Shown here piece after piece: positions 17,074 to 26,438 of a stretch of DNA of 64,000 bases (position 1 is the first letter of the stretch; every line of letters starts with the position of its first letter). The notes under the pieces were generated by a model. It was given only the letters and a program-made list of their open reading frames with translations. It did not search any database and was not told where the DNA came from. Source of the stretch: Darksidea phi (taxonomy: Eukaryota > Ascomycota > Dothideomycetes > Pleosporales > Lentitheciaceae); assembly GCA_030770425.1 (NCBI GenBank), contig JASJFT010000031.1, forward strand, positions 124,001-188,000, given 5' to 3'. The position numbers and the translations under genes are program-made.

Positions 17074-19181
17074 TTAAGCGTAGTTCGCTGTGATTGAACC
17101 GTACTTCATGCCATTGACAGACACCGAGAACTCGAGCGAGGAATGAACAGCTATTTCCACATCGTGGAGCAGATATTTGTACCGGATTCCCTTGGGATTG
17201 TAAAGCGTCCGGAACTCGCTCTCAGGGACGGAGCTAAGATCAATCACGAGCTCAGCAACTGTAAAGACATTCTAATAAAATCAGTCGGGATGGTCTCTCA
17301 TATCATGAATAAGGTTACTTACTAGATCCTTCGAGCGATGCGGCGCCCTTCCCGCATCGGAAGCCATAAGCGGGGTACCCATAATTCTACGTTCGTCTTC
17401 GTAGAATTTGCAACACAATGCAATCTTTCCATGAACCTGCTCGGAAGTTGAAAGGTCTTGGCCCTTGTTAATCAGCCATTTCATCTGGTTATTCGCGCGC
17501 TTTTCCCCTGTGTACGGGCAGATATATGAGTCAGATTCGCGGTGCTTATTGCGATCGAAAAGTTGACTACAAGAAGTGCCGTAATGACGGCGACATTTGC
17601 GGAACTTGACGGGGGTTCGGCCATCGCTCTCAAGACCTTTTACCGTTGCACCGCGAACAATGGCAGACCAGCTACAGTAAACGTCAGTAGAGTTACGACC
17701 GATGATAGAGCATCATGCTGTACGTACGCGTACACTGGCTTGATTGCCTGAATACCCTGAGCTTTGGCCATCGCACTAATACTACCGTATATATAGGGCG
17801 ACTCTGCGAAACCGCCGACCATGAACACATACTACACTATTGTCAGATTCTGGCCATGTAGCCCTGGAGGAATGGAGTGCTTCTCACCTTCAATTCAGTT
17901 CTGCCACTCATACGCGCTTGGCGAAACTGCTCCATCAAGAGCTCTCGGGTCCTACGTAACGGAAACTCGAACATCTCCTCCATGTCGGACCTAGTAGAAG
18001 TCAATCATCAATCACTAATCGCAATCCACGGGTGGAAGCAGATTGGAGTTGTACTTACGCTGTGATGAGAATATCTCCATCACACATTCCTCGATCTTCA
18101 TCATCAATAGCGCTCAGAGGGGCTGGAAGGCGCAAATAGTAGTCCTCATCCCCAGAGAAGCCACTCTTCGCAGTCATGATGAACTCTTGGACCATTCTAC
18201 TCAACTTAGGCGGCAATGAAGTGCGAGACAATTCATCTACACGGCAACCGGCAATCTTGACGAAATCTTCGACACCAAGTTTGTTCTCCAACCACAGAAG
18301 GAAGCCACGGTCGACGAAGCTACCACCGCATTGATCGCCAGTACCGACTGTGGCTTCTTCGACAGCCGTAGGTTCGGTACCTGCCACTCGGTACGAGATT
18401 AGGTCAACGGTACCGCCGCCCATATCGCAGACGACAAAGCCATCGCCAACTGCCAACTGTTCATCGTGAACGCTTCCCTTCAAGGACTTGATGGTATAGA
18501 TAGCAGCCGCCTCGGGTTCTGTCGCCGTTACGACGCGCTTCAGCTGCGGGAACTCGCCAGTATTGAATCCAGCTTTAGATACGGCTTGCAAAGTTCGATT
18601 CTTCGCACCATCCGACCAGACTGCCGGGACAGTAACTACCAGGGTAATGGGCAGCGTCATCCACAGTTCGCGACCGTACTGGTTATCGAGATTCTTGAGG
18701 AGATGCTCTTTGATCTTTGCGAGAAAGTCTGCGATGATGTCGACAGGCCGCTTCTGATCTGCACCATTACCAAGGGTCAAAGATGCGAGCTCTAGGCGAA
18801 TATTCTCAGCTTCGCCGGTTTTTGGACTATCAAGCTCCAACTTGGTCCACATATGTCGCTTCTTATGTGGTGGAATTAGAGAGCCCCAACGTATGCCCTC
18901 CGCAAGGTAAGCAATCTCGCTTGGGACTTTCTCTTTCGTTCCAATCATAGTATGAGCAGCAGGCCAATCCTGTATGACTTGGATGCGCTCTTCGGTCCCG
19001 CTCGTATCCGAAGTTTCGCAGAAGGACACGCCTGTTTATGTCAGAATCACTGCGCAAATGGCAGAGGGAAACCCCTCACCCGTATAGGTCGTGCCATAGT
19101 CGAGCCCTAATCACACGGTGTCAGTTGTGTCAGCCAAATAAGTAAGTGATACTGACCGATCACCAGTCTATTGCTCAACAT
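17074..19181 (-). CDS. HSPA12/Hsp70-like ATPase, copy A
   Basis: Seven exons, in gene order 19181-19157, 19106-19080, 19031-18059, 17990-17888, 17831-17728, 17671-17323, 17271-17074, give 592 aa. Actin/Hsp70-type nucleotide-binding motifs are present: phosphate-1 GLDYGTTYTGVSF (split by two introns), TVPAVWSDGAKNRT, ATEPEAAAIYT, phosphate-2 CDMGGGTVDLISY, GTGDQCGGSFVDRGF and adenosine motif FMVGGFAESPYIY. The remaining 180 residues (ARGA-like VRGATVKGL, then KCRRHYG) are short and unlike a DnaK substrate-binding domain, the layout of fungal HSPA12-like proteins. The last acceptor was chosen as TTATTAG because it keeps frame with copy B. It is divergent with the coiled-coil gene at 19683. Such proteins should bind and hydrolyse ATP in the cytosol; the client is unknown. 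Confidence 0.88.
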
Positions 19182-19682
19182 CTTGATGGCTTACTGGCTG
19201 TTGGTACCGGCTGCAGGTAACTTTGAGTACTATCGACAGCGGCGAATTTGTAGCGATGGGGCGGGGTGATTAGCGAAGGGGTGGAGGTAAGAGGCGCGTC
19301 TTCAAAGTTTCGGCCGCGACAAGTCTGGCTGTCGTCCCGGTGACAAGCTTTTTCCGGGGCTATAGTGAAGGCGAAAAGCTCGCTCTTGGACTAGTACGCA
19401 AATTACACACGGATCAAAAATCATGTAGCCGAAGAGGCGGACATGCGCTTCACCTTCACCGCTTCCCCACCAGCGAGGCTAAGTGTCGGACGCCGTGAGC
19501 TTTTAAAGTTCTCCCACTCTCCTCACAAGTTGTCCCTGGCAAATCGAACACGAATGGTGTGGCTAAGTAAGAGTCGTGCCTCTTACTCTACAGACTGCTC
19601 ACATTAATTATAGTTTGCAGAAACCTTTAGAGGCTTGAAGAGGTCCCTTGGAACCACGACCGGTACTTTCCAGAAGAACAGA
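19182..19682. promoter_or_regulatory. Bidirectional promoter of pair 1 (Hsp70-like A / coiled-coil C)
   Basis: The 501-bp spacer is the only upstream sequence for both start codons, so both promoters must lie here. It contains the word CGGTGAAGGTGAA on the minus strand at 19449-19461, which also occurs in the equivalent spacer of pair 2. No clear TATA box seen. Confidence 0.6.
19449..19461 (-). promoter_or_regulatory. Shared 13-bp word in divergent promoter 1
   Basis: CGGTGAAGGTGAA, read on the minus strand; identical to 24217-24229 in the second divergent promoter but in opposite orientation. It could be a control site or chance: an 11-base match also lies near 49711 outside the block. Confidence 0.35.
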
Positions 19683-24018: not shown

Positions 24019-24544
24019 GGTCATTCAAACGTCTAGCTGCTGCAGCTCAGTTGTATGTGTTGGAGTTTAATGGTTTATACGTGTGTTGTGTGAAAGGAGA
24101 GCGTGGTTGGTAGTGGTGGGTAAAGGGCTCTTGCTCATATAGAGTGATACGAACCCAACGACGAGTACGGACTAGCCTATCTTAATCGTTGGGGATTTGT
24201 AGGGTTTGGCAGTGTACGGTGAAGGTGAAAACATCAAAACCAGCCATGGTGATACCATATTTGCCTTGGACTTCATGATCCCGCTCACCGCCTAAAGGGC
24301 ATTCGTCACAAACAGTCTAGCTCGTCTCTCACCTACTCAGCTAGAAGTGTTGGCTTTAGTGACGCACAACTTATCCTGTCTTCCACTTCATATTAGCGAC
24401 CTGTCCAAGTATCCCTTCGCAGCGATGTGTAAATATGTAAGTGCGTACTATAGTCTCTGCTACAAAAGCTGCTGACTCTTCCTTCAGATTAGGGATATTT
24501 TCACGCAATCCAGCCCGGGAGAAAGCAACGCTCGGCCTCGAAAC
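24019..24544. promoter_or_regulatory. Bidirectional promoter of pair 2 (Hsp70-like B / coiled-coil D)
   Basis: 526-bp spacer between two divergent start codons, nearly the same length as in pair 1. It carries CGGTGAAGGTGAA on the plus strand at 24217-24229. Confidence 0.6.
24217..24229 (+). promoter_or_regulatory. Shared 13-bp word in divergent promoter 2
   Basis: CGGTGAAGGTGAA, identical to the reverse complement at 19449-19461. The flanking bases are not obviously similar, so it stands out from the diverged spacer. Function unproven. Confidence 0.35.
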
Positions 24545-26438
24545 ATGACGTCCGCCCCGCAGTCGGCCAAGAAGGGGGCCCAAGACGATAATTCAGCCTC
24601 CAATGAACCAGACAAAAAGCGTCGACTGGGATTTAGCACGCAATATGGCCAATCATCACTACATCATTCTCCCGGCGATCATCATGCGTATGATGCGGTT
24701 AAACCAGGGAATACGGGGCATGCATTACGTTGCGACTCTTATTCAAAGCAACGCCCCGCTTCCTCCCTCACCATGACAAGGAGACAATATGCCGCCACTG
24801 TCGAAAAGCTCAGACACGAAAATAAGAAGCTGGTTAACAATAGCGAAATGTTCGGCAGGCAGCAAAATAGTCTTCTTGACAGATGTCAGGTGCTCGAGAA
24901 TAACGGACAGGAACTCCGCGACTGGAATCTAACTTTACACACAAACAATCAGAAGCTGAAAATTGATAATGAGCAGCTATACGATGAGTGCAAGCGTCTT
25001 CAATGCAGGTTCCACGATCTCGGAACAGGGAACGGGATGCTTCACGACACGAACAAACATCTGCAAGCTGCGGTGCATAAACTCGAAATCGAGAACCAGG
25101 CGCTTCGCTCCTCCGAAGATAATGCGAATGGCAATATACAACGACTCGGCATCGAAATTGGAGAACTGCAGTCCAATCTCAAAATCCTCCGCCTCAACTT
25201 CCAGACACAAGATGCCGAAAACAAGAAACTTCTTGCCAAGATTAGTGAGCTTCGAGGAACCAATAATAAGCTCAAGAGCGACATCGACTACGCAAATTCA
25301 CGGTGCCGGTACTTCTTTGACAACTGCATACAACCTTATCTTGCGAATAAGGGACATTTGCGTTACGATGAGACCGATACAAAAACTATTGATCGAGTTT
25401 TCAAGTCTCTCCTTGGAGATGCTCTCGGCCCCGCTACCTGCCGCTCTCAAGTGCATCACCTTGAGCAACAAGTACAGTCTCTCCAGCAACAGTTACTCTC
25501 AAATGTCGAGAAGATCCAGGTCGTCACCGATGCTCAATTCACGCAAGTTTTCCGTGATCTTGCTTCCACCATCAAAACGTTCAGCCGATCCATCGAGCTC
25601 TCGGACGCGATCGACGTGCTCGATATCAAGTCAATTCGTGCCTGCCTATTGGCATGTGGGGTAAAGGAAGAGTACTGGACTACGATTACTCGCAAAAACT
25701 TCTTGATTGAAGCGTTCATCTGGTCCACGCTATGCGACTTCCTGTTCGATGGCCCTTGTAAGTTATTGCCATTTTACCGTTCTTTCCAACGTTTGAACTA
25801 ACTTATTTGAATCTTCAGTCTCTTACTATGGTATGATATCAGAGAGTTTCACGGAAAACTACTTCGAGATGTTTGGGAAAAACCATCAGCACAGGTGGCC
25901 AGTTCCCAGCGAGTTAGCTGAGCGATGGCGACTTACTACTGTGGAGCAACTCGTAAACATAGCGGGTAGCAAGGCCATCAAACAAAGCAGGATGATCAAC
26001 GTACAGGCCCAAGTAGAGAACAGCACCCAGAGACACCGTGAGCTGGTTGCAAACAGCATTGCAGAGCCGCTTACCCAACTCTCTACAAACACAGACTTCG
26101 CTACCGTCCCTGCGATCATCGATAAGGCGTTCGCGCTGTCGTTGAAGATGTCGCTGCAGCGATGCCGTTTGCAAGTTGTCTTTCCTGCAATTGGTGAGCG
26201 TTATATCGAAGGAGCTACCCCGAGCCTCACCAGCGTCCCCGAGAGCGAGGAAGTTGAACGCGGATATGTGGGATTCATCGTGAAGCCTGGACTTGCGAAG
26301 TGGGGCGACGCTCATGGGCAGAAATTGGATCAGCGACTTGACCTTGTTCCCTCGGTGGTATTCGTTGATCCTAATTACAAGGCAACCGGCATGCCTACGG
26401 TTGGATGCTATGTCAGAATCAACCACGAGTCCATTTAG
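24545..26438 (+). CDS. Coiled-coil partner protein, copy D (family not recognised)
   Basis: Exons 24545-25757 and 25819-26438 give 610 aa. Residues 1-75 are polar; about 80-330 is a long heptad-rich coiled coil (many NxxLxxxN/ExxL runs such as KLRHENKKLVNNSEM and ENQALRSSEDNANGN), much longer than in copy C. The C-terminal half aligns with copy C: TDAQFTQVFRDLASTIKTF, IEAFIWSTL, WPVPSELAERWRLTTVEQLV (about 435), SLKMSLQRCRLQVVFPAIGE (about 515), VERGYVGF and PGLAKWGDAHGQKLD (about 565). The intron sits where copy C has uninterrupted sequence, so one copy gained or lost it. Divergent with Hsp70-like gene B. Function unknown; the coiled coil suggests oligomerisation or scaffolding. Confidence 0.85.

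What the first reader, a model, noticed from the sequence alone, without database searches (positions are those of the whole stretch)
17074..26438. Tandemly duplicated divergent pair: Hsp70/HSPA12-like ATPase plus coiled-coil partner
Two back-to-back pairs in the order A(minus) C(plus) B(minus) D(plus). The ATPases share five internal exon lengths to the base (27, 103, 104, 349, 198 nt). The coiled-coil proteins share a C-terminal half with conserved SELAERW, MSLQRCR and PGLxKWGDAHG blocks that I cannot place in a known family. Spacers are 501 and 526 bp. Duplication of the whole divergent unit, both halves kept intact despite clear divergence, suggests a two-component chaperone-like system with co-regulated, interacting parts. 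The role is unknown; self/non-self recognition, stress or assembly control are only possibilities.
Basis: partly seen in the sequence, partly recalled or inferred. Interest (0 to 1): 0.88.

Follow-up and report, generated by a model that had tools for sequence, protein, structure and literature searches.

The report
Fungal Hsp70-like ATPase and GrpE-like partner
Two neighbouring gene pairs in a fungal genome each join an Hsp70-like ATPase to a coiled-coil protein whose tail resembles GrpE, the bacterial protein that helps Hsp70 release spent nucleotide; the partners stay together in related fungi, which points to a dedicated chaperone-type machine not described in the papers searched.

Summary
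Two head-to-head units (A/C and B/D) lie at 17074-26438. The reading as a co-inherited two-component unit is supported, and the partner can now be placed.

110 partner homologues were found. For 24, an ATPase of this clade lies on a contig of identical length; of 8 pairs with comparable serial locus tags, 7 are immediate neighbours. The two protein trees mirror each other, paralogue lineages included. In this genome 6 of the 7 HSPA12-like ATPases found have a head-to-head coiled-coil or membrane partner; three of these partners (C, D, C106) are directly homologous, two only indirectly, one not shown.

Best reading: an Hsp70-like ATPase with its own GrpE-like exchange factor. Binding, exchange activity and role are untested.

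The parts
17074..19181 (-). Gene A: HSPA12-like, Hsp70-family ATPase, 7 coding exons, 592 aa
   Evidence: Splice model; Pfam HSP70 38.2 bits, cut-off 20.6
19182..19682 (.). Divergent spacer A-C (372 bp if the tiny first exon of C is used)
   Evidence: Coordinates; holds GGTGAAGGTGAA at 19449-19460
19683..21383 (+). Gene C: coiled-coil partner with GrpE-like C-terminal domain, 566 aa (591 aa if exon 19554-19566 is joined to 19621)
   Evidence: profile link to GrpE
20805..21182 (+). GrpE-wing-like domain of C with its leading helices (residues 375-500 of the 566-aa form)
   Evidence: Part of the stretch compared (columns 255-381 of the fragment 20040-21182); strands in the model from fragment residue 308
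21940..24018 (-). Gene B: paralogous ATPase, 7 coding exons, 588 aa
   Evidence: Splice model; Pfam HSP70 40.6 bits
24019..24544 (.). Divergent spacer B-D (406 bp if the tiny first exon of D is used)
   Evidence: Coordinates; holds GGTGAAGGTGAA at 24218-24229
24425..26438 (+). Gene D: coiled-coil partner, exons 24425-24436, 24488-25757, 25819-26438 (633 aa), or start at 24545
27100..29510 (-). E: third, broken copy of the partner family with an N-terminal hydrophobic stretch; reading frame interrupted, two pieces match the family
   Evidence: family HMM pieces at 27865-27383 (E 6.6e-13) and 28963-28019 (E 8.4e-7) in the small set searched; 28% identity piece

Best explanation
Each divergent pair encodes one dedicated machine: an HSPA12-like, Hsp70-family ATPase and its own coiled-coil, GrpE-like cofactor. 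The coiled coil probably dimerises the cofactor and places it in the cell. Its C-terminal beta domain, like the GrpE wing, would enter the nucleotide cleft of the partner ATPase and drive ADP release, setting where and how fast the ATPase cycles on its client. The head-to-head arrangement would keep the two parts balanced, and the unit duplicates as a whole because ATPase and cofactor are matched. Shown here: gene structure, neighbourhood, co-inheritance, NBD motifs and predicted NBD fold, GrpE-like sequence profile. Inferred: dimerisation, physical contact, exchange activity, client, shared promoter and co-expression.
Confidence: 0.5

Rival explanations
1. The two proteins form a complex, but the GrpE-like domain is a docking module without exchange activity: the partner is a scaffold that carries the ATPase to a site (cytoskeleton, membrane) or client, and the ATPase acts as a switch.
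For: The partners at C472 and C447 carry a membrane-spanning segment, C and D long coils, which fits targeting; the structural match to GrpE is weak.
Against: The part of GrpE that is matched is the wing, which opens the cleft.
Confidence: 0.27
2. A recognition or conflict module (heterokaryon incompatibility, defence): the pair senses non-self or danger, and duplication with divergence creates specificities.
For: Several unit lineages in one genome and in relatives; receptor-like membrane partners; a broken copy E.
Against: No death or recognition domain was seen in the Pfam scans of the partners; polymorphism within a species was not examined.
Confidence: 0.12
3. Neighbourhood without contact: the two genes share a bidirectional promoter and a process, but the proteins do not bind, and the GrpE likeness is convergence of short strands.
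For: Short aligned stretch, no GrpE signal in the distant group, partner-type genes without ATPase neighbour.
Against: Paralogue-level agreement of the trees; 0 of 300 shuffles reach the observed profile score; an Hsp70-type ATPase beside a GrpE-like domain would be a coincidence.
Confidence: 0.09

Closest known systems
DnaK-GrpE of bacteria and mtHsp70-Mge1/GRPEL1 of mitochondria
   Same: Hsp70-type ATPase with a partner made of a long helical stalk and a C-terminal beta domain; sequence profile of that domain matches
   Different: The ATPase is a remote, HSPA12-like one; the partner has an extra helical region and a much longer coil; the genes are a head-to-head pair in a fungal nuclear genome that also has its own GrpE/Mge1 gene. 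Location in the cell is unknown
HSPA12A/HSPA12B and other atypical Hsp70s
   Same: Remote Hsp70 NBD plus a strand-rich C-terminal part without a helical lid
   Different: No tree against HSPA12 was made; the name HSPA12-like is for convenience. A 2008 survey reported HSPA12 homologues only in vertebrates among the genomes it examined (PMC2266713, passages). I saw no cofactor for HSPA12 in the passages read
Cytosolic exchange factors Hsp110, HspBP1/Fes1/Sil1, BAG
   Same: Would share the task of ADP release from an Hsp70-type ATPase
   Different: Other folds (PMC4753570, passages); none of them was among the Pfam matches seen for the partners scanned
Plant GIL1/IRKI C-terminal domain (Pfam PF24994)
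   Same: Weak hits in 21 of 94 members, best E 0.0027; in the three inspected members the hit lies in the same C-terminal strands
   Different: All inspected hits are below the Pfam cut-off; no link to an ATPase is known to me

Membership tests
Hsp70 superfamily (A, B) | Pfam HSP70 match over the curated cut-off | tested here: met
   38.2 and 40.6 bits, cut-off 20.6
Hsp70 superfamily (A, B) | Two phosphate motifs and the adenosine motif of the NBD | tested here: met
   D-x-G-T-T, D-x-G-G-G-T-x-D and G-G-F conserved in 74 relatives and readable in A and B
Hsp70 superfamily (A, B) | Hsp70 NBD fold | tested here: met
Canonical Hsp70 chaperone (A, B) | Helical lid after the beta domain | tested here: not met
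   No helix of four or more residues after residue 427 in the model of P0023; the Pfam match ends at the NBD
HSPA12 (A, B) | Grouping with HSPA12 in a tree | not tested
   No HSPA12 sequence was fetched; name used for convenience
GrpE (C, D) | Pfam GrpE match over the cut-off | tested here: inconclusive
   Met by one family member, P0176; C and D give no GrpE hit; 23 of 94 members hit GrpE at E 10 or better, but two coil families and GIL1_IRKI_C come close in count (22, 20, 21)
GrpE (C, D) | Profile similarity of the wing domain | tested here: met
   P 1.4e-5 for one comparison, 0 of 300 shuffles as good
GrpE (C, D) | Stalk plus C-terminal beta domain fold | tested here: inconclusive
GrpE (C, D) | Dimer formation and nucleotide exchange on an Hsp70-type ATPase | not testable with these tools
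   Needs purified proteins; complexes could not be predicted here

The most novel reading that the evidence does not exclude
Fungi run a whole class of two-gene machines, each an Hsp70-like ATPase with its own GrpE-derived exchange factor. The factor's N-terminal module (coiled coil, or a membrane-spanning receptor-like part) decides where or upon which signal the ATPase fires, so that chaperone cycling has been turned into a modular signalling or positioning device outside organelles. Partners co-duplicate so that the units stay insulated from one another.
Probability: 0.27. Interest if true: 0.88.

Novelty: new variant of a known kind. Interest (0 to 1): 0.72.

Why it matters
[quoted passage not shown] A GrpE-like partner fixed beside an Hsp70-like ATPase in fungi would cross that division, if the pair acts outside organelles, and would give a large, poorly understood set of fungal Hsp70-like ATPases (1918 relatives at E 1e-20 or better among the candidates scored) a concrete mechanism to test. 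Two diverged units in one locus offer natural matched and mismatched pairs for specificity tests.

Tried and rejected
Partner as a known coiled-coil family: the Pfam hits of D's coil (Rab11-FIP3, CENP-F and others) are below the cut-offs and such coil families appear throughout the family scan. Partner in the PDB by sequence: none for C at E 1 or better; the family profile gives mainly coils and, at E 0.39, GrpE 4ani. Foldseek of the partner model: no match at E 0.001 or better. A home-made GrpE HMM on single partner proteins is weak: P0176 13.1 bits and P0197 10.2 bits in the C-terminal part, best reversed control 7.1 bits. GrpE against the distant partner group: not significant. GrpE against the membrane group: not significant (P 0.085). 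C457's coiled-coil neighbour against the family: not significant alone (P 0.079). Heat-shock elements in the spacers: none with three units. Repeat-induced mutation as the cause of the broken copy E: indices close to those of the whole window. Shared 12-mer GGTGAAGGTGAA: once in each spacer and nowhere else in the window, 44 times in the genome against 27 for the backward control; found after looking, so a lead only. Literature: eight searches, the last one about the plant domain; judged from the listings, none describes these pairs. Three papers were opened for passages only (PMC4753570, PMC2266713, PMC13149161).

Rows dropped: P0175, P0182, P0187 and P0227 were not put into A1 (106 of 110 homologues plus the fragment of C; D was not in A1). 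P0147 and 12 others of A1 were left out of A3 because of the residue limit (94 of 107 rows). The contig test used the 120 listed of 1918 ATPases. For Clathrospora two ATPases share the contig; P0030 was used in the trees, P0078 not. Two of 100 shuffles failed in one control.

Full report
What is there. The window is 64 kb of a 51.35 Mb genome in 477 contigs. Between 17074 and 26438 lie four genes in the order A(-) C(+) B(-) D(+). Splicing A and B at consensus borders gives proteins of 592 and 588 residues; exons 2, 4, 5, 6 and 7 have identical lengths in both (27, 103, 104, 349, 198). A and B are 52% identical end to end, C and D 43% over 338 columns. C and D share SELAERW, MSLQRCR and PGLxKWGDAHG.

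Who has the partner. Two searches of a database of 5.8 billion proteins gave 110 partner homologues, 37 of them with an organism name. From general knowledge these are Pleosporales; I looked up three names only, of which two bear the partner, and NCBI puts Lizonia in Dothideomycetes incertae sedis. The database is reached through shared 5-residue words and within length limits, so absence elsewhere is not shown.

Linkage. For 24 of the 110 (23 of the 37 named) an ATPase among the 120 best of 1918 lies on a contig of the same length and, where named, in the same genus. Equal length is taken to mean the same contig. For 86 of 110 (14 of 37 named) no listed ATPase has such a contig; this may come from the cut list and from clustering at 90% identity, and decides nothing. 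Eight of the 24 pairs carry comparable serial locus tags. Seven differ by one (N0V94_001241/001242, J4E80_004635/004634, G6011_05334/05333, J4E85_007292/007291, SLS59_004026/004027, N0V95_001877/001876, J4E81_005715/005714); one does not (E8E12_002188/002063, same 191 kb contig). Tags of the form xxxDRAFT_n are model numbers rather than positions (general knowledge): of eight such pairs one differs by one (P280DRAFT_548005/548006) and one by eight (COCMIDRAFT_109326/109318, a 24.5 kb contig). Kalmusia ATPases carry tags 007226, 007228 and 007230, as an alternating array would; their neighbours were not seen.

Co-inheritance. Trees of 26 matched pairs agree: distance correlation 0.678, best of 5000 permutations 0.423. 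Part of this is species kinship. It goes further: Alternaria BMP2799 joins Bipolaris and not the other Alternaria in both trees, and swapping its partner with that of another Alternaria lowers r by 0.13 to 0.17. Swapping A/C with B/D partners lowers r by 0.033, swaps between Didymellaceae lineages by 0.027 to 0.048, and three swaps inside one lineage by 0.003 or less. A/C sits with Byssothecium, Massarina and Lentithecium in both trees; B/D sits with Periconia in the partner tree and is unresolved in the ATPase tree. A/C and B/D are not sisters, so the duplication is probably old.

More units in the same genome. Searches with B and with the C472 ATPase found ATPases of this type at C212, C472, C106, C457 and C447, seven with A and B; other HSP70 matches were taken to be ordinary Hsp70s and not examined. 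At C106 the divergent neighbour is a coiled-coil protein homologous to the family (P 3.1e-8, score 57.4, best of 100 shuffles 23.5). At C472 and C447 the divergent neighbour has a hydrophobic, membrane-spanning-like stretch; its C-terminal part, together with that of C223, is related to the distant partner group (P 1e-6 with and 1.2e-4 without C457 in that group, no shuffle as good) but only weakly to the C/D family directly (P 0.0074). At C457 the divergent neighbour is a 921-residue coiled-coil ORF whose homology was not shown (P 0.079). At C212 no such neighbour was seen in 9.9 kb. Thus 6 of 7 ATPases found are head-to-head with a coiled-coil or membrane partner. Conversely, partner-type genes at C424, C79 and C223 have no ATPase in the 9.9 kb fetched. 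The close family is linked; the wider superfamily is not always.

What GrpE does. [quoted passage not shown] GrpE is described from bacteria, mitochondria and chloroplasts, while cytosol and ER use other families (PMC4753570, passages). The genome's own GrpE gene lies at C436.

Reading. An Hsp70-type ATPase tied through duplication to a protein with a GrpE-like wing is most simply an ATPase with its own exchange factor. Contact, exchange activity, client and cellular place are inferences. The main rival keeps the complex and denies the exchange activity. Recognition or conflict functions are possible and untested.

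Noticed in passing
27100-29510 (-): A third, broken copy of the partner family (E), with an N-terminal hydrophobic stretch and two stretches that match the family; no ATPase of its own was seen next to it.
   Followed up: partly
19449-19460 and 24218-24229: The 12-mer GGTGAAGGTGAA occurs once in each divergent spacer and nowhere else in the window; 44 copies in the genome. 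A candidate shared control element, found after looking.
   Followed up: partly
C-terminal strands of P0146, P0152, P0153: Weak Pfam hits to the plant GIL1/IRKI C-terminal domain fall on the same strands as the GrpE likeness; a deep link between the plant domain and this one is possible.
   Followed up: no
L029 2386-3453 (-) and L057 4093-4830 (+): Head-to-head neighbours of ATPases at C472 and C447 look like single-pass membrane proteins with a cytoplasmic partner-type domain.
   Followed up: partly
L055 3879-5540 (+), L056 4636-6147 (-), L058 4603-5931 (-): Partner-type genes without an ATPase in the 9.9 kb fetched.
   Followed up: partly
19554-19700: If the tiny first exon is used, C begins with a basic, possibly amphipathic stretch; P0001, P0011 and P0022 begin similarly by eye. 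Organelle or membrane targeting of the partner is possible and was not tested.
   Followed up: no
29867-32137 (+): The next gene looks like an ING-type protein with a PHD finger at its C-terminal end, judged by eye from the translation.
   Followed up: no
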